Source of the DNA: Candidatus Peregrinibacteria bacterium
Lineage (GTDB): Bacteria; Patescibacteriota; Gracilibacteria; UBA1369; UBA12463
Direction of reading: 5' to 3'
DNA length: 64,000 bases
Assembly: GCA_026395555.1 (NCBI GenBank)
Contig: JAPLYO010000015.1
Span: forward strand, 1-64,000
The position numbers and the translations under genes were made by a program. The notes beneath the pieces were generated by a model that was not told the DNA's origin, did no database searches, and was given only the letters and a program-made list of their open reading frames with translations. Below, in pieces: positions 13,372-64,000 of the stretch (position 1 is the stretch's first letter; each line of letters opens with the position of its first letter).

Positions 13372-14862
13372 ATGCAAATTTCATTTTCTCCGTCACTTCC
13401 AGCAGGATTAGAGGTTCTCATCTGCCCGGTTCTTTTCGATAAGAAACATCCTGAGATTTCTAAATATCCAAAAGCTCTTCAGGAGCTCATCAAGTCCGCT
13501 TTGAAAAATAAGCAACTTTTAGAAAAGGCGGAAAGTGCCTTTGATATGCAGGTATATGCACCACGACTGCCCAAAGATATTATTTTGGTAAGTTTGGGAG
13601 ATGTGAATAAGTTAAAAAAATCTACCGTCCGAAATGCAGTAGCAACAGGAATTAAGATGGCTCGCGCCAAGTCGAAGAAGGAGGTTGCACTCTACTATAC
13701 CGAGGAGATGGACGCTTACGCACGTGTTGTCGGAGAGGTACTGCTTATGGCAAATTATCTCGTAGCAAGATACAAGACGGGAAAGAGTTTGGACGTCGAG
13801 AAGAAAAAGATTCTATCAGGGCTGACGCTCGTAACATCGCATAAGGCTGCGATTGAAACTGAATTAAGAAAGGGAATGGCTGTTGGCGCTGTAGTGAATA
13901 CAACACGAAGTTTGATTAATGATCCGCCTAATATATTGACGGCTCGCACACTCGCCGAGCACGCACGTACGATCTCAAAAGATGCGGGTCTTAAGTGCAT
14001 TGTTATCGAAAAGAAGGAGTTAACAAGAATGAAAATGGGCGCTCTCTTAGCGGTAAATCGCGCGAGCGACTCCGAGGAAGACGATGCACGACTCGTCGTA
14101 ATCGAACACCTTCCAAATAAAAATGAGAAGCCAATCGCGCTCATCGGAAAGGGAATTATTTTTGATACAGGCGGATATGATCTCAAGCCATCGAAGCACA
14201 TGGGTGATATGCAGACCGATATGACGGGTGCTGCAGTTATTATGGGTGTCATGAGTTTATTGAAAAAACTTGGAATTAAACGCAACGTCATCGGCGTCGC
14301 GGCAATTACCGCCAACCTCGTAGGTCCCAAAGCCTATAAATCATCAGAAATTATCACATCCTATTCGGGAAAGACGATCGAGATTACAAACACAGATGCG
14401 GAGGGTCGTGTCGTTCTCTGCGATGCAATTAGCTATGCGATCAAGCAGTACAAGGTGAAGCAGATCATCGACCTCGCTACACTTACGGGCGCTTGCTGTG
14501 TCGCTCTCGGCGATCGCTACGCCGGCATGATGGGAACAGACAAGAAGGGCATGAAGCTTATGAGAAAAATGGGACGCATGACCGATGATCTCGTCTGGCC
14601 GCTTCCTATTCATCCGGACTTCGAGGAGAAGATGAAGAGCAAGATCGCCGACATCAAGAACACGGAAGAAGGATACTACGCTGGCGCTTCCAAGGCCGCC
14701 GCCTTCCTCAAATTTTTCGTCGAAAAAACTCCATGGATCCATCTCGATATCGCGGGAACGGCCTACACGCACGACCCTAAGAAGTATGAATCAATTCTTG
14801 GAACAGGTTTTGGTGTCCGTCTCGTCTCATCGTATCTCGAGGCACTAGAACAGCAGGCGTAA
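13372..14862 (+). CDS. pepA: Leucyl aminopeptidase (peptidase M17)
   Basis: The 496-residue protein has the M17 family signature NTDAEGRVVLCDA (about residues 338-350) with Asp and Glu metal ligands, and upstream GKGIIFDTGGYDLKPSKHMGDMQTD, which carries the Lys and Asp that bind two metals. It removes N-terminal residues from peptides in the cytosol. The last part ends with HLDIAGTAYT, as in the family. msrB follows after 21 bases on the same strand and may be co-transcribed. Confidence 0.93.
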   Translation: MQISFSPSLPAGLEVLICPVLFDKKHPEISKYPKALQELIKSALKNKQLLEKAESAFDMQVYAPRLPKDIILVSLGDVNKLKKSTVRNAVATGIKMARAKSKKEVALYYTEEMDAYARVVGEVLLMANYLVARYKTGKSLDVEKKKILSGLTLVTSHKAAIETELRKGMAVGAVVNTTRSLINDPPNILTARTLAEHARTISKDAGLKCIVIEKKELTRMKMGALLAVNRASDSEEDDARLVVIEHLPNKNEKPIALIGKGIIFDTGGYDLKPSKHMGDMQTDMTGAAVIMGVMSLLKKLGIKRNVIGVAAITANLVGPKAYKSSEIITSYSGKTIEITNTDAEGRVVLCDAISYAIKQYKVKQIIDLATLTGACCVALGDRYAGMMGTDKKGMKLMRKMGRMTDDLVWPLPIHPDFEEKMKSKIADIKNTEEGYYAGASKAAAFLKFFVEKTPWIHLDIAGTAYTHDPKKYESILGTGFGVRLVSSYLEALEQQA

Positions 14863-57690: not shown

Positions 57691-57719
57691 TTTACAAACA
57701 GGGGAATACGTGATACAAT
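57691..57719 (+). promoter_or_regulatory. Promoter of the pilin-like/PKD gene cluster
   Basis: -35 TTTACA (57691-57696), exactly 17 bases, -10 TACAAT (57714-57719) preceded by TG. Transcription would start near 57726, about 20 bases before the first ATG. No other promoter is obvious between the three genes. Confidence 0.65.
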
Positions 57720-57745: not shown

Positions 57746-58816
57746 ATGTCATATAAGGTAATGTCACGCGAACAAAAATCGGAGGTGTACCGAAATTTGC
57801 GACAGATCGGAATGATGACGGCGCTTCTTGCACTTGTGCTACTCATGGCAGATAGTGCTATGGCGGCCAACGCCCTGCCTCTTGGCGACGTGACAACATT
57901 TAGTGGTGGTGGCGATAGTCTCGTAGGTGATCCAGGCGGTGCGACCATCGTCGAATCTCTTGCGAATCTCGTCGGAGGATTTACGAGTACCGATAGTGGA
58001 ATTATAGGAAAACTACGTGGCATCATGGCAGCAGTTGCTATCGCGATGACAATTTATTCCTCCCTCAAGATGCTTCTAGCTCAAGGAGAGGAGTCGAAAA
58101 TTACAAGTGCGAAAAAAGGCATATACATGGGAATTCTTGGACTTGCTGTCATAAGTATCGCGGGTGAGTTTACAAAAATACTCTCCGTAAATAAGGAGGC
58201 CGCGCAGTATATATTTGTCGATAAGGTTGGTGGAACGTTGGCATGTTCCTATGCGAGCACCTTTCTCGGAGGCGGCGGATCATCGACAGGTACGGAACTT
58301 CTCTGTCGTGTAAATTTATTTAATGCAACTGTGAAAATAGTTATCACGTTTATTAAGTATCTTATTTCCGGTATTGCTGTGTACGAAATTATCTCATCAG
58401 CGTATCGCATTATCACGCTGGGAAGCGAGGCGAGTAATTTGGAAAGAGATAAGAAGAATTTGATCTTTGGAGCGGTCGGACTTTTGTTGATTATATTTTC
58501 AGAATCGATTATCGCGAAGGTGTTTTATAAACTTAACTTTACCTCATACAGTCAGCTCGATGGAGTGAAGCCAGCAATTGATCTATCGGAAGGTGCTAAG
58601 CAGATAGCATCGGTAGCGAATCTTGCAGTAAGTATTATCGGGCCAGTATTGATTTTAATTATTATTGGTGCCGGGATCATGTACATGGCAAGCGGAGGAA
58701 ATGAGGAAAAGCAGTCACAGGCCAAGCGTGCTATTGGATTCGCTGCGGTTGGCATGCTCGTCGTGTATGGAGCATTCGGGCTAGTATCAACAGTTATTAG
58801 TGGTCAGTTTCAATAA
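57746..58816 (+). CDS. Membrane protein with three T4SS-pilin-like units (I)
   Basis: The 356-residue protein has a signal-like hydrophobic start (about residues 20-40, cleavage near MAANA) and then three similar units at about 88-146, 197-262 and 290-353. Each unit has a hydrophobic helix, a Gly/Ser turn with acidic residues, a short basic loop with Lys-Lys or Lys-Arg, and a second hydrophobic helix, for example IMYMASGGNEEKQSQAKRAI. This is the plan of TrbC/VirB2-like pilins, and CPR proteins of this kind are labelled T4SS_pilin. It is the first of three consecutive genes. Confidence 0.7.
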   Translation: MSYKVMSREQKSEVYRNLRQIGMMTALLALVLLMADSAMAANALPLGDVTTFSGGGDSLVGDPGGATIVESLANLVGGFTSTDSGIIGKLRGIMAAVAIAMTIYSSLKMLLAQGEESKITSAKKGIYMGILGLAVISIAGEFTKILSVNKEAAQYIFVDKVGGTLACSYASTFLGGGGSSTGTELLCRVNLFNATVKIVITFIKYLISGIAVYEIISSAYRIITLGSEASNLERDKKNLIFGAVGLLLIIFSESIIAKVFYKLNFTSYSQLDGVKPAIDLSEGAKQIASVANLAVSIIGPVLILIIIGAGIMYMASGGNEEKQSQAKRAIGFAAVGMLVVYGAFGLVSTVISGQFQ

Positions 58817-58825
58817 AAAATACAT

Positions 58826-59830
58826 ATGAAAATTATGCTTAGAAAAATATTGCCAACGCTTCTCATGACGATCGTCATGGTATCTATGCTGATTTTGCCA
58901 CAGATCACCGTTGCGCAATTTGCAGGTTTGGATGAGATTAATCAGCAAACGGGGCTTCCATCCGAAAAGGATTTTCTTCCACGTGGAACGAGTCCTGGAA
59001 ATGATTTAGGAATTAACCGCCTCGAGGGACTGCTGCTCACAGTAGTAGATCTCGTGAAGTATCTTATCTATGGTATCGCCATTTTTCTGTTAGTATTTCA
59101 AGGATTTAAGCTTATTATCGCCGGAAAAGATATTGATACATTTAGCGAAGAAGCGAAAAAAAATGCGAAGTATAGCTTGATGGCCATACTTATAGTTTTT
59201 GTGGCGGACACGGCCATACGAAAAGTATTTTTCCCGGAGAGCGGGGCGATATTTGAAAATAACGGAGCAAATATTCAGCTCTATGGAGAGGCGGGAATCG
59301 TTCAAATTCGTTCGATATACAACATTATGGCATACCTCTCAGGAGCAATCGCCCTAGCGACTATCGTCTTCAGTGGAGTAGGCATGGCTCTAAGCGCCGG
59401 AAGCGAAGAGGGATTCAAAAAACATAAAAACAGAATTCTTTGGGCGCTTGCAGGTCTTCTCCTTGTGGGTGTGGCAGAGTTTGTCGTCAAAGATGTGCTC
59501 TTCCCGGATATAGGAACAAAACTCCCAAATATCAGTAAAGGTATGCTTCTCTTGAAGAACTTTACGAACTTCATGGCAGGCTTCGTCACAACGATATCAT
59601 TCGGCGTCACGCTCTATGGTGGATTCCTCTATGTCGTAGGAGGAGTGAGCGAAGATAGTCTCGGAAAAGCAAAGAAGGCGATCGTCGGTGGCATAGTGGG
59701 TATTCTCCTCTCGGCCGCGGCGTTTGGCCTCGCTACAACGCTCATTCAGGCTGATAGTAGTGGTACTACTATCGCACCGGTCGGCCAGGCGCCGGCAGGT
59801 ATACCAAGTGTAGCTTCACCTACAAAATAA
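58826..59830 (+). CDS. Membrane protein with three T4SS-pilin-like units (II)
   Basis: The 334-residue protein starts with a signal peptide (about residues 5-30, VAQFAG cleavage) and has three pilin-like two-helix units at about 70-136, 162-226 and 243-309. The third, with TLYGGFLYVVGGVSEDSLGK and KKAIVGGIVGILLSAAAFGL, is the most typical. The C-terminal ~25 residues are polar and Pro/Ala/Ser-rich. It follows the first protein by nine bases, so the genes are co-transcribed. Confidence 0.7.
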   Translation: MKIMLRKILPTLLMTIVMVSMLILPQITVAQFAGLDEINQQTGLPSEKDFLPRGTSPGNDLGINRLEGLLLTVVDLVKYLIYGIAIFLLVFQGFKLIIAGKDIDTFSEEAKKNAKYSLMAILIVFVADTAIRKVFFPESGAIFENNGANIQLYGEAGIVQIRSIYNIMAYLSGAIALATIVFSGVGMALSAGSEEGFKKHKNRILWALAGLLLVGVAEFVVKDVLFPDIGTKLPNISKGMLLLKNFTNFMAGFVTTISFGVTLYGGFLYVVGGVSEDSLGKAKKAIVGGIVGILLSAAAFGLATTLIQADSSGTTIAPVGQAPAGIPSVASPTK

Positions 59831-59921
59831 TATAGCAATCAGTCAAACAAAGACGATGGATGATAAAGCCAAATAGGCGTACAATAGAGAGAAGTACAAA
59901 TAGCAAAATAAAGTATAAACA

Positions 59922-62900
59922 ATGAATCAGATCGCAAAACAACACGGAAAAAAGAAAAATAATTTTTTCAAAAAAGTGATCGTCTCGCTGACGATGCTTT
60001 TTATGATCAGTGGATCGATTCAAATGGTCGCGGCGGCAAGTATAACCGACACGCTCGGAAGCGTAGTTGATAAGTTATTTACGACGGATACCGGAACAGG
60101 CATCGTCTCACTTACAGATTTTAAAGGAGGTCTCTCGGCACCCTCAACAGAAGGATATGACGCGAAGCTTACTGAGGTTACAGACGCTCGTACATTTATC
60201 GTGAAGGTTGTTAAGTACGCCCTGAGTTTTTTGGGATTAATCGCCGTGTTGATTTCTATCTATGGTGGAGTGAGAATCCTCACCTCGGCAGGTGAGTCTG
60301 ATGGCGTAGAAAAAGGAAAAAAAGCAATCACCTATGCATTAATCGGTATCGTTGTAATCCTGGCATCATACGCCATCGTTAATACGGTACTGCAGGCGCC
60401 TGGTGGAGCACCGGCGAACGTACAGACACAGACAGGTACGCAGTCGGCGCTGGGCTTAGGACCGGCAAGTGGAAATAACTCACAGGCAAGTAGAGTGTAT
60501 AATTTAGCGATCAATGTAATTAAGACATACCAGAACTATGCTCAGGGGGCTCTCGCGATCGAGGGTATCCAGCAGAGTATAGACAAGATCTGGAATGGCG
60601 TAAGTTTTAGTAATCAGAGCGTTGCGAACAGCGCTCTTTCACAGATACAAAATAATTATAATTCCATCGCTGAAACGTTGAGCGCAGCGGCCAATCGTAG
60701 CACAGAGCTCTCGGTACTTACTGACATGGTTCAGTATCAGAGTTTATTCGTAAAGAAATGGATCGATACTCGAAGATCAGAGATGAGCGCAGTGGCAAAT
60801 GCAGCACTTTCTGGCGCAGGTGTAACGGCAGGTTCAACAGGTGATAATCTCACGACATTCAACGGAGACTTCGCGCTCTATGGTAAGTATTTCGTCGGAA
60901 AATATGGCGAACTTATTGTAGCCCTAAAGGATGGTTCATATGATATCAATGGTTCAAAGGTAGACATTGGAATCAACGCCATGAAGACACAGTTGGCCGG
61001 CGATTTTGATACTCAAATGGATAAATATTCTAAAGAGCTCGCTGATATCAAAAACAGCCTCTCTCAGGCAGATGGAACATTGACAATCACGGATGCGGGA
61101 AGAGCGATTTTTGAAAAAATATACACAACAGACTCCGGTGTGGCCGATATGATCCTCCAACTTAAGAAGGATAAATTGTCGCCAGTAGATAGTAAAAAAA
61201 CACTCAAGGATTTGGCAACAAATCTAGGAAGTCTGTATGAAATTCTTAAAGATCTAAAAGGCGTTGACGTTAAATTGGCGGCAAGTATCAAGGAGGGAAA
61301 CGCGCCGCTCATTGTTACCTTCAGAACACAGGGTTCAAAAGATCCATCAAACCTCTCAATTATTGATGATAATATTTTCTGGGATTTGGATGGTGACGGA
61401 AGCTTCGGTAAGACAGGAAAAGAGGTGAATAGTATTGGTTGCGTAGAGCCAAAATCAGCAGTAGCTACTTGTATTTACAAAAAACCGGGAACGTATCATG
61501 TTGCCGTAAGAATTAAGAGTGCATCGCCGGACAATAGTGTTATCGAGGGAATTCAGTATGTTGATATCAAGGTAAATCCGGCACGTGCTCGATTTAACTT
61601 ACAACTTATTTCTACGAATAATAATCATGAAGAGATAATTCCTATCACGGCATATGACAAGAATGGTCTGCTCAAGATCGATCGTGCTCGTGTTCAGCTC
61701 GCTTTTAGTGAGATTCAGAAGAGTCTAAAATTTAGTGCTACCGGAACGATTTCTGGTGATACTACGAAGCTTGATGATGGAACGGATCTTTCCAAACAGA
61801 CGCAGGATACAATCCAGCGAGTAAAATGGTCGTTCGGTGATGGTACTGAAATTGACGACTCGCCTGCGGAAAATCCAAATATTCTCGTAGTCGATCATCC
61901 ATATGCACGAAAAGGTAGTTATCAGGTCACACTCGAGGTGACGGGAAAGGATGGTATTGTAGACAGAAAGATATTTTCCGTAAATGTTGCCGATATATCG
62001 GCTATCATTAATGTCACTCCTGGATATACAGCAAAAGTGAACTCGCCAATCACCTTCACGAGTTCGGTAACGAGCGATGGAAGTAAGGTTATTGTGACAG
62101 AATGGAGTAGCACGCCGGAAAACAGCAAGCTCTCAAGTAAGCAGCCACAGTTCTCTGCGGCAATCGATAAGCCGGGAACATATACGGTTGAGTTACGAGT
62201 TCAGAACGAAAACAAGAGCGAGGCAGTTGATAAAATCGATATCACCATCGAATCAAATCCGCCCGTTGCAAAGTTTTCCGCAAAGGCCCCAGTAGCATCC
62301 AAGCCTGCAGAAATTCTGCTCGATGGATCGGAGTCGTATGATCCGGATGGAGTAGGTACAAAAATCTTGTATCAGTGGAAATTGGAGGGAGAAGAGAATA
62401 AGGATTACAAGATTCTTGACGGAAATGAAACAAATAAAACGATGCTTATTCGTTATCTTACGGTGGGAGACCACAAGGTAGAGCTCACGGTAGAAGACGA
62501 GAGTGAACGCGGAAAAACAACAAAATCATTACAAACGATTAGCATTAAATCATTACTCGATATTGTGTGGCTCGATAGCACGCAGTCGACAGGAATATTG
62601 GATGCATCCGGTGAGTCAGAGATTGCCATGGGCGTACAGAGCATAAATGGAAAGACATACTCATGGGACTTCGGAGATGGTGAGGTAGAGGACGGAGTCT
62701 TTACCACGACAGAGGCTCAGACGAAGCATATATATAAGAAGGCGGGAGTATTTACCGTATTTATGACGGTAAAAGATGATAATAACAATGAGCTCAAGGT
62801 GTCTCGTCGAATCTCCATCGGAGGAGGTGATGCTCCAATTATTTCTACGCAAGTATTGGTAAATGGTCAGGAGCCGGATGGTGCCCAGATGTTCACGGTA

Positions 62901-64000
62901 AATAGAGTCGACGTGATAACATTTGATGCAACGGCCTCAAAAAATCGCGATGGCACAACGAAAAATCTTGATTACTCATGGGATTTCGGTGACGGCAAGA
63001 AGAGTACAAAAGCGCTCGCGACATATTCATACAAAACGCTCAGCCCAAAAGATATTGGTTATTTCACGGCAAAGTTAACGATTTCGGATAAGTCTGATCC
63101 TACGAAGAAAGCCGAAGATACATTCAAAATAAATGTTGTCGCCCTAAAACCTCAATTGAAGACTCTCCTTGTTATTCCGCTCTCGGCCGAGTTTAAGACA
63201 CCGACTCGAGTTCAGCTCAAGGCTATCGAACCAAAAGCTCCGGAGGGTTCAATCGTCTCATACCGATGGTGGTATTACGATCCAAAAGACAATACAAATG
63301 AACTCGGATCTCAGATCACAACAACTCCGGAAACAACATTAACTATTGGAACGAAGGGCGAGGAGGGTGCTCAGATCACCTATGCATTTCAGGTTGAGAT
63401 GCGTGACACGGAGAATCAAACCATTACGGCATCCGACATACTTGGCGCCGAGAACCTCCCAACGCTTACCGTAACGAATGGTGCAAACAAACCGCCTGTT
63501 GCGGAAATCATTGCGAGCAAAACATCAGTGAATGCAGGGGAGGCGATTACATTTACCTCAAACTCCAAGGATGTTGATGGGAAGATCGTTTCATATGTAT
63601 GGGATCTCGACGGTAACGGGTTCCAGAACGACGAACCAACGACAAAGTCGAGCATTACAAAAGTATACGATTCAGTTGCTCCAGAGGGTATTAAGGTGCG
63701 ACTCAAGGTTATAGATGATAGCTATGCGGAAGGAATTTCACCTCCGATTACCATTTATGTAACCTCAAAAACCACGCCACCAAAGGCATCATTTACGTCG
63801 ACGCAAAAAGAAGGAACGATGGAGGTTGCATTCAATAGTACAACGATCGTCGATCCAACGCTAACATTGACTGACACGGTATGGGATTTTGATACAGCAT
63901 CAATGTATAACTCGGCCGATTCAGATGGTAATGGCATCAAGGACGATGACAAGGACGCAACGACGAAGAATCCTACGCACACCTATCAAGCGCCTGGAAT
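59922..64000 (+). CDS. Giant T4SS-pilin/PKD surface protein, continuing past the window
   Basis: The frame is open from ATG 59922 to the end of the window (at least 1359 codons). It has a signal-like helix (about residues 18-38), one pilin-like two-helix unit at about 90-158 with ISIYGGVRILTSAGESDGVE and KKAITYALIGIVVILASYAI, and a helical stretch up to about residue 450. From there come at least five and perhaps seven PKD-type beta-sandwich domains, recognisable by YSWDFGDG, VKWSFGDGTEID, YVWDLDGNGF and similar, as well as KAGVFTVFMTVKD-like ends. PKD domains mediate protein or glycan binding at the surface. Together with the two genes upstream it may form a single membrane-surface complex. 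Confidence 0.8.
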   Translation, partial: MNQIAKQHGKKKNNFFKKVIVSLTMLFMISGSIQMVAAASITDTLGSVVDKLFTTDTGTGIVSLTDFKGGLSAPSTEGYDAKLTEVTDARTFIVKVVKYALSFLGLIAVLISIYGGVRILTSAGESDGVEKGKKAITYALIGIVVILASYAIVNTVLQAPGGAPANVQTQTGTQSALGLGPASGNNSQASRVYNLAINVIKTYQNYAQGALAIEGIQQSIDKIWNGVSFSNQSVANSALSQIQNNYNSIAETLSAAANRSTELSVLTDMVQYQSLFVKKWIDTRRSEMSAVANAALSGAGVTAGSTGDNLTTFNGDFALYGKYFVGKYGELIVALKDGSYDINGSKVDIGINAMKTQLAGDFDTQMDKYSKELADIKNSLSQADGTLTITDAGRAIFEKIYTTDSGVADMILQLKKDKLSPVDSKKTLKDLATNLGSLYEILKDLKGVDVKLAASIKEGNAPLIVTFRTQGSKDPSNLSIIDDNIFWDLDGDGSFGKTGKEVNSIGCVEPKSAVATCIYKKPGTYHVAVRIKSASPDNSVIEGIQYVDIKVNPARARFNLQLISTNNNHEEIIPITAYDKNGLLKIDRARVQLAFSEIQKSLKFSATGTISGDTTKLDDGTDLSKQTQDTIQRVKWSFGDGTEIDDSPAENPNILVVDHPYARKGSYQVTLEVTGKDGIVDRKIFSVNVADISAIINVTPGYTAKVNSPITFTSSVTSDGSKVIVTEWSSTPENSKLSSKQPQFSAAIDKPGTYTVELRVQNENKSEAVDKIDITIESNPPVAKFSAKAPVASKPAEILLDGSESYDPDGVGTKILYQWKLEGEENKDYKILDGNETNKTMLIRYLTVGDHKVELTVEDESERGKTTKSLQTISIKSLLDIVWLDSTQSTGILDASGESEIAMGVQSINGKTYSWDFGDGEVEDGVFTTTEAQTKHIYKKAGVFTVFMTVKDDNNNELKVSRRISIGGGDAPIISTQVLVNGQEPDGAQMFTVNRVDVITFDATASKNRDGTTKNLDYSWDFGDGKKSTKALATYSYKTLSPKDIGYFTAKLTISDKSDPTKKAEDTFKINVVALKPQLKTLLVIPLSAEFKTPTRVQLKAIEPKAPEGSIVSYRWWYYDPKDNTNELGSQITTTPETTLTIGTKGEEGAQITYAFQVEMRDTENQTITASDILGAENLPTLTVTNGANKPPVAEIIASKTSVNAGEAITFTSNSKDVDGKIVSYVWDLDGNGFQNDEPTTKSSITKVYDSVAPEGIKVRLKVIDDSYAEGISPPITIYVTSKTTPPKASFTSTQKEGTMEVAFNSTTIVDPTLTLTDTVWDFDTASMYNSADSDGNGIKDDDKDATTKNPTHTYQAPG

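What the first reader, a model, noticed from the sequence alone, without database searches (positions are those of the whole stretch)
57746..64000. Seven T4SS-pilin-like membrane units in three consecutive genes, the last fused to a giant PKD surface protein
I count 3+3+1 two-helix units with the same plan (helix, Gly/Ser-acidic turn, Lys-rich short loop, helix) in three genes that share one promoter. Isolated VirB2/TrbC pilins have one such unit. Here they are concatenated and presumably stay in the membrane, with the third protein carrying a long PKD extension outside. No VirB4/TraG-type ATPase is in the window. The system could be a surface fibre, an attachment device or a host-contact apparatus built without polymerisation of free pilins. 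T4SS_pilin-type proteins are known in CPR genomes; the concatenated arrangement and its role are inference.
Basis: partly seen in the sequence, partly recalled or inferred. Interest (0 to 1): 0.65.

Follow-up and report, generated by a model that had tools for sequence, protein, structure and literature searches.

The report
Chained pilin units plus giant adhesin-like protein
In a group of ultra-small bacteria (Peregrinibacteria), the two-helix building block of secretion-system pili is chained three-in-a-row in two neighbouring genes and then fused to the base of a giant surface protein, in a layout kept across a whole bacterial order, which suggests a fixed membrane platform for holding or contacting other cells rather than a pilus that polymerises.

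Summary
ORF1 (57746-58816), ORF2 (58826-59830) and ORF3 (59922-64580, cut by the window end) hold exactly 3, 3 and 1 two-helix units, all clear PF18895 (T4SS_pilin) relatives with weaker, sub-cut-off TrbC/VirB2 similarity. ORF3 is a 1552-aa PKD protein. A fourth gene beyond the window (64608-66749) is a membrane-anchored PKD protein whose last two helices may be a degenerate eighth unit. The organism is a Candidatus Peregrinibacteria member. The 3-3-1+PKD-PKD order holds in all 20 relatives read; 58 of 59 genomes have ORF1-type matches. The seven units are position-locked: across 31 loci each groups with the same position elsewhere. Four internal units carry conserved charges in or near the membrane; three terminal units lack them and resemble single-gene pilins. 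The cassette is not beside VirB4 and persists in near-complete genomes where no VirB4 was found. Elsewhere in the phylum the same kind of unit roots giant Ig-like surface proteins. Best reading: a non-polymerising, pilin-derived membrane platform displaying a giant adhesin; the function is inferred. VirB2-like pilin gene arrays in Patescibacteria are published; the chaining and the PKD fusion were not found in the literature searched.

The parts
57691..57719 (+). promoter-like site TTTACA-17-TACAAT with extended -10 TG, 26 bp before ORF1
   Evidence: consensus match, 10 of 12; not evidence of function
57746..58816 (+). ORF1, 356 aa: signal-like N-terminus plus three T4SS_pilin-like two-helix units
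   Evidence: PF18895 46 bits; three units by own HMM; AlphaFold helix pairs
57995..58186 (+). unit 1.1 (internal class; K/R at column 12 in 100% and D/E at column 63/64 in 71% of 31 loci)
58328..58531 (+). unit 1.2 (internal class; K/R 94%, D/E 61%)
58601..58804 (+). unit 1.3 (terminal class, like single-gene pilins; none of these charges)
58826..59830 (+). ORF2, 334 aa: signal-like N-terminus plus three units
   Evidence: PF18895 63 bits, 3 stretches
59033..59236 (+). unit 2.1 (internal class; K/R 97%, D/E 90%)
59303..59506 (+). unit 2.2 (internal class; K/R 13%, D/E 100%)
59549..59752 (+). unit 2.3 (terminal class)
59922..64000 (+). ORF3, 1552 aa, continues to 64580: signal-like N-terminus, one unit, helical stretch, PKD domains, C-terminal hydrophobic helix and basic tail
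60195..60398 (+). unit 3.1 (terminal class; groups with the units of giant proteins in other Patescibacteria classes)
60462..61253 (+). helical stretch between unit 3.1 and the PKD domains (aa 181-444)
   Evidence: AlphaFold model, mean pLDDT 70
61269..64000 (+). PKD region of ORF3 (aa 450 onward, continues past the window end)
   Evidence: PKD_4 E 1.9e-60, 6 stretches, full-length ORF3

Best explanation
The four-gene cassette encodes a membrane-embedded, non-polymerising platform derived from VirB2/TrbC-type pilins that carries a giant PKD surface protein. ORF1, ORF2 and ORF3 are probably exported by Sec. Each unit spans the membrane twice, with its Lys-rich loop inside and both ends outside. 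ORF1 and ORF2 are read as covalent trimers (internal-internal-terminal) that pack together, helped by the conserved charges of the internal units. ORF3 adds one more unit and holds its helical and PKD ectodomain outside, tied to the membrane at both ends; ORF4 adds a second PKD partner. The likely role is to display a long adhesin or host-contact structure in a bacterium that probably depends on other cells. Shown: unit identity, 3+3+1 plan, conservation, position-locking, two unit classes, fusion to PKD, separation from VirB4. Inferred: topology, packing, uncut chains, adhesion or contact role.
For: PF18895 over cut-off in all three proteins; exact 3+3+1 by own HMM. Same four genes in order in 20 of 20 relatives; in 42 named loci, 40 intact 3+3. 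Nearest neighbour of each unit is the same position in 31 of 31 loci for all seven; five positions are exact clades, support 0.93-0.97. Internal units have K/R at column 12 (100, 94, 97, 13%) and D/E at column 63/64 (71, 61, 90, 100%); terminal units 0%. Loops are K/R-rich against the linkers, 0.205 v 0.085, fitting loops inside and PKD outside. VirB4 not adjacent, and not found in three genomes of 97-100% completeness that keep the cassette. Units of the same group root giant Big_5/TIG proteins in other classes. Published: T4SS pilins and a PKD protein among highly expressed genes of parasitic Patescibacteria (PMC10936435); giant PKD-bearing membrane proteins in Vampirococcus (PMC8080830).
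Against: No experiment. AlphaFold does not resolve the packing (pTM 0.47 and 0.56) and Foldseek gives nothing significant. Most relatives do have a VirB4 and PrgI elsewhere, so a link to a dispersed T4SS is not excluded. The charged columns may lie at the membrane surface rather than inside it. Adhesion is inferred from PKD domains only.
Confidence: 0.5

Rival explanations
1. The chained units are the divergent polytopic membrane platform (a VirB6-like role) of the dispersed T4SS of this lineage; the PKD proteins act as its adhesin, and the five single-unit pilins elsewhere form the pilus on it.
For: VirB4 in 52 of 57 relatives, PrgI in the own genome, no VirB6/TrbL over cut-off. Published survey: VirB6 homologues absent in class Gracilibacteria and no adhesin detected in Patescibacteria (PMC12102498). 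A conserved PilT plus five-pilin array exists in the same genomes.
Against: Cassette not adjacent to VirB4; kept in three near-complete genomes where no VirB4 was found. The units match pilin profiles, not TrbL.
Confidence: 0.22
2. The internal units form a membrane channel or force-transmitting complex (stator-like), with the PKD proteins as its external load; the conserved charges act in ion passage or gating.
For: Conserved K/R and D/E only in internal units, conserved D75 and K78 in ORF2.
Against: Charges by my estimate lie towards the outer interface; no family match to known channels or stators; no partner ATPase known.
Confidence: 0.1
3. Polyprotein pilins: the chains are cut between units after export and the released units polymerise as an ordinary VirB2-type pilus, with ORF3 as base or tip.
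For: Units are pilin-like and their linkers are predicted outside, where a protease could reach them.
Against: Internal units differ from every single-gene pilin seen here in the conserved charges; VirB4 not adjacent and sometimes not found. A conserved cleavage site in the linkers was not specifically tested.
Confidence: 0.06
4. Generic membrane anchors: the pilin-like hairpins were reused only as transmembrane anchors of surface proteins and no longer have any pilin-like or assembly function.
For: Single units root giant surface proteins in several classes.
Against: ORF1 and ORF2 carry no large ectodomain to anchor, yet are kept with fixed, position-specific units across an order.
Confidence: 0.12

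Closest known systems
VirB2-like pilin gene arrays of Patescibacteria (PF18895/PF04956; Quinonero-Coronel et al. 2025, PMC12102498)
   Same: Same unit family; several different paralogous units side by side; same phylum.
   Different: Published arrays are separate genes of one pilin each, 2-11 in number; here three units share one gene, twice, and a seventh is fused to a PKD giant; the paper's text does not mention PKD or multi-unit genes.
TrbC/VirB2 conjugative pilins (PF04956)
   Same: Two-helix plan with a short basic loop; sub-cut-off profile similarity, E 4.2e-5 to 1.8e-4.
   Different: Below the family cut-off (24.1 and 22.1 against 27.9 bits); one unit per protein; polymerised by VirB4/VirB11 on VirB6 (review PMC12624023), with no VirB4 adjacent here.
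Mbov_0395/MMCAP2_0565 pilin-like protein of mycoplasma ICEs (NF045849)
   Same: Same stretches of ORF1, ORF2 and ORF3 match (25.3, 24.4, 23.7 bits).
   Different: Below its cut-off of 40 bits; a single 80-residue unit, no PKD.
CPR pilus system RbmA-like protein PamR (NF058578)
   Same: Matches a PKD-like stretch of ORF3 (45.5 bits) and ORF4 (22.4 bits).
   Different: Far below its cut-off of 300 bits and only about 45 residues; a shared PKD fold, not membership.
Giant membrane surface proteins of Vampirococcus and other Patescibacteria (PMC8080830; L111-L117 here)
   Same: Very large exported proteins with PKD or Ig-like domains; in L111-L117 with an N-terminal unit of the same group as unit 3.1.
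   Different: Not preceded by 3+3 chained-unit genes in the loci read; Big_5/TIG instead of PKD in the two giants scanned (L111, L117).

Membership tests
PF18895 T4SS_pilin | Profile match over the curated cut-off | tested here: met
   ORF1 46, ORF2 63, ORF3 31.6 bits against 26.6
PF18895 T4SS_pilin | Each of the seven units matches on its own | tested here: met
   Six units found separately at or under E 2.5e-5 (1.3, 2.1, 2.2 and 3.1 over cut-off; 1.1 at 24.8 bits just under), three stretches in ORF2; unit 1.2 only by the own HMM at 62 bits, whose class matches single-unit pilins at hhalign 99.2%
VirB2/TrbC T4SS pilin (PF04956) | Profile match over the curated cut-off | tested here: not met
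   22.1 and 24.1 bits against 27.9
VirB2/TrbC T4SS pilin (PF04956) | One two-helix unit per protein | tested here: not met
   3, 3 and 1 (the last with about 1400 further residues)
VirB2/TrbC T4SS pilin (PF04956) | Encoded with VirB4 and other T4SS genes | tested here: not met
   VirB4 on another contig; 215 kb apart in single-contig G054
VirB2/TrbC T4SS pilin (PF04956) | Assembles into an extracellular pilus | not testable with these tools
   needs experiment
VirB6/TrbL platform (PF04610) | Profile match over the curated cut-off | tested here: not met
   only one sub-cut-off match in the genome, on contig C1
PKD-domain surface protein | Several PKD domains in one protein | tested here: met
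   PKD_4 6 stretches in ORF3 and 6 in ORF4
PKD-domain surface protein | Exposed at the cell surface | not testable with these tools
   signal-like N-terminus and C-terminal helix seen in the sequence only
CPR pilus PamR (NF058578) | Match over the curated cut-off | tested here: not met
   45.5 and 22.4 bits against 300

The most novel reading that the evidence does not exclude
A new kind of cell-contact apparatus: a covalently pre-assembled hetero-oligomer of seven or eight pilin units, with charge-bearing internal units and pilin-like terminal units, forming a permanent membrane pore or ring that carries a giant PKD arm and lets these bacteria dock to, and perhaps exchange material with, host cells without a polymerising pilus.
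Probability: 0.15. Interest if true: 0.88.

Novelty: new variant of a known kind. Interest (0 to 1): 0.62.

Why it matters
Patescibacteria are a large part of bacterial diversity and mostly depend on other cells, yet how they hold and feed on hosts is largely unknown. This cassette is a near-universal feature of one order and is a precise candidate. It shows the T4SS pilin unit turned from a polymer subunit into a fixed chain with specialised links. In this lineage it runs against reading paralogous pilins as freely varying (an idea raised in PMC12102498): here each unit is locked to its place. It also ties the ubiquitous but unexplained T4SS pilins of the phylum to its giant surface proteins. 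Both ideas can be tested with complex predictions and in cultured epibionts.

Tried and rejected
PDB sequence search with ORF1 and ORF2 profiles: no match up to E 10. Foldseek with both models: only chance helical matches, E above 0.2, so fold comparison neither supports nor refutes VirB2. VirB6 membership rejected on profile. PamR (NF058578) rejected as a shared PKD stretch. Recent tandem duplication rejected: units cluster by position across genomes, not within a genome. Eighth unit in ORF4: hhalign 77.7% to the single-unit profile against 2-5% for reversed controls, but the window genome's own ORF4 scores near zero with the unit HMM; left as possible. No papers found on PKD domain with Patescibacteria, or RbmA-like with CPR. 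Not done: co-evolution between ORF1 and ORF2, and a protease-site search in the linkers.

Full report
What is there. Three co-directional genes lie at 57746-58816, 58826-59830 and 59922-64580 (the last runs past the window). They diverge from the nusG/L11/L1 block. Pfam finds PF18895 (T4SS_pilin) over cut-off in all three. A unit HMM built from relatives finds exactly 3, 3 and 1 units at 52-73 bits each. Controls: one of 408 reversed membrane ORFs gave a hit, and 164 other membrane ORFs gave none above 12 bits. TrbC/VirB2 (PF04956; ORF1 and ORF2) and the mycoplasma pilin-like model NF045849 (all three) match the same stretches below their cut-offs. AlphaFold places a helix pair with a four-residue turn at the three ORF1 units and at the ORF3 unit. 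The packing is not resolved (pTM 0.47 and 0.56), and Foldseek gave nothing significant.

Beyond the window. ORF3 is 1552 aa: signal-like N-terminus, one unit, a helical stretch (aa 181-444), PKD domains (PKD_4 E 1.9e-60) and a C-terminal hydrophobic helix with a basic tail. No ATPase or SLH domain was found in the five downstream proteins scanned. ORF4 (64608-66749, 713 aa) has about three hydrophobic helices and six PKD stretches. As a family, its last two helices match the single-unit profile at 77.7% hhalign probability over 61 columns, against 2-5% for reversed controls. An eighth, degenerate unit is possible but not established. Two proteins further on end in PKTGPEM-like or KTGPEM-like sorting signals, and the genome has two sortase matches.

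Who has it. Named matches are almost all Candidatus Peregrinibacteria, with Peribacteria and a few Gracilibacteria or unclassified labels. ORF1-type matches occur in 58 of 59 genomes of the order, own genome included. All 20 relatives read keep ORF1-ORF2-ORF3-ORF4 in order on one strand (in one, ORF3 is split into two frames). In 42 named loci, which overlap that set, 40 show intact 3+3 units; the other two are a contig end and a frameshift. In other families of the class the 3+3 pair stands apart from PKD genes, and in one family (f17) the one-unit PKD gene and an ORF4-like gene sit together elsewhere.

Seven different units. In a tree of units from 31 loci, each unit's nearest neighbour in another locus is the same position, 31 of 31 for all seven positions (a few loci may be the same genome from two collections, which inflates this count, but the clades do not rest on it). 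Five positions are exact clades with support 0.93-0.97. Units 1.1, 1.2, 2.1 and 2.2 form an internal set. Units 1.3, 2.3 and 3.1 form a terminal set that joins ordinary single-gene pilins. Internal units carry K/R at column 12 of helix 1 (100, 94, 97 and 13%) and D/E at column 63/64 of helix 2 (71, 61, 90 and 100%). Terminal units have 0% at both; single-unit proteins have 4% and 0%. The plan is internal-internal-terminal, twice, then terminal plus PKD. By my estimate these charges lie towards the outer leaflet or interface.

Relation to secretion systems. The genome has one VirB4-type ATPase (C8), a PrgI (C8, 37 kb from it) and no VirB6/TrbL match over cut-off. VirB4 is found in 52 of 57 relatives; where it shares a contig with the cassette they are tens to hundreds of kilobases apart, 215 kb in single-contig G054. 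Three genomes of 97-100% completeness (G010, G021, G030) have the cassette but no VirB4 by two searches. A second locus in this genome holds five single-unit pilin genes behind a PilT-family ATPase (TIGR01420 over cut-off); the same layout is seen in 8 of 14 relatives.

Across the phylum. 232 of 240 Patescibacteria genomes have unit matches, many of them in short single-unit genes. In several families of other classes a giant protein of about 1900-3500 aa begins with one unit, followed in the two scanned by Big_5 and TIG domains, and is paired with a 550-850-aa one-unit partner. These units and unit 3.1 form one group (support 0.958). Chaining also occurs elsewhere: a 414-aa protein with four units (L124).

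How it most likely works. Sec export, two passes per unit with the Lys-rich loop inside (loop K+R 0.205 against 0.085 in linkers), and linkers and PKD domains outside are inferred from sequence by established rules. VirB2 pilins are known to be extracted with lipid and polymerised on VirB6 by VirB4 and VirB11 (review PMC12624023). A covalent chain of non-equivalent, charge-bearing units, kept where no VirB4 was found, fits poorly with that. I read the cassette as a fixed membrane platform for a giant adhesin-like arm. Host contact is the likely use: published work reports T4SS pilins and a PKD protein among highly expressed genes of parasitic Patescibacteria (PMC10936435) and giant PKD-bearing membrane proteins in the predator Vampirococcus, a relative of Peregrinibacteria (PMC8080830). 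The function remains untested.

What is new. Arrays of separate VirB2-like pilin genes in Patescibacteria are published (PMC12102498). In the papers searched I found no description of chained units in one gene, of the pilin-PKD fusion, or of the fixed 3+3+1 cassette; most subscription papers are not held, so this is not proof of novelty. I call it a new variant of a known kind.

Noticed in passing
G000 contig C2:12340-16723 (locus L011): Five single-unit T4SS_pilin genes directly downstream of a PilT/PilU-family ATPase (TIGR01420 over cut-off); PilT plus such an array recurs in 8 of 14 relatives read. A T4SS-type pilin array with a PilT-type ATPase is unexpected.
   Followed up: partly
L111, L112, L113, L114, L115, L116, L117: In other Patescibacteria families giant proteins (about 1900-3500 aa) start with one T4SS_pilin unit and sit beside a 550-850-aa one-unit partner, often after lepB- and hisS-like genes; the two giants scanned carry Big_5 and TIG domains.
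   Followed up: partly
L124:1292-2536 (-): A 414-aa protein with four chained units among single-unit pilin genes, in another class of the phylum.
   Followed up: no
window coordinates 64608-66749 (L009:7608-9749): ORF4: its last two hydrophobic helices may be a degenerate eighth unit (hhalign 77.7% as a family).
   Followed up: partly
window coordinates 67045-70260 and 71041-71553 (L009:10045-13260, 14041-14553): Proteins ending in KTGPEM/PKTGPEM plus hydrophobic helix and basic tail, like sortase sorting signals; the genome has two sortase matches (C29, C1).
   Followed up: partly
G010, G021, G030: Near-complete Peregrinibacteria genomes with the cassette but no detectable VirB4 by two searches.
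   Followed up: partly
G000 C8:171327-171971 and C17:10046-10405: Two further isolated single-unit T4SS_pilin genes, the first upstream of an AI-2E-family transporter gene.
   Followed up: no
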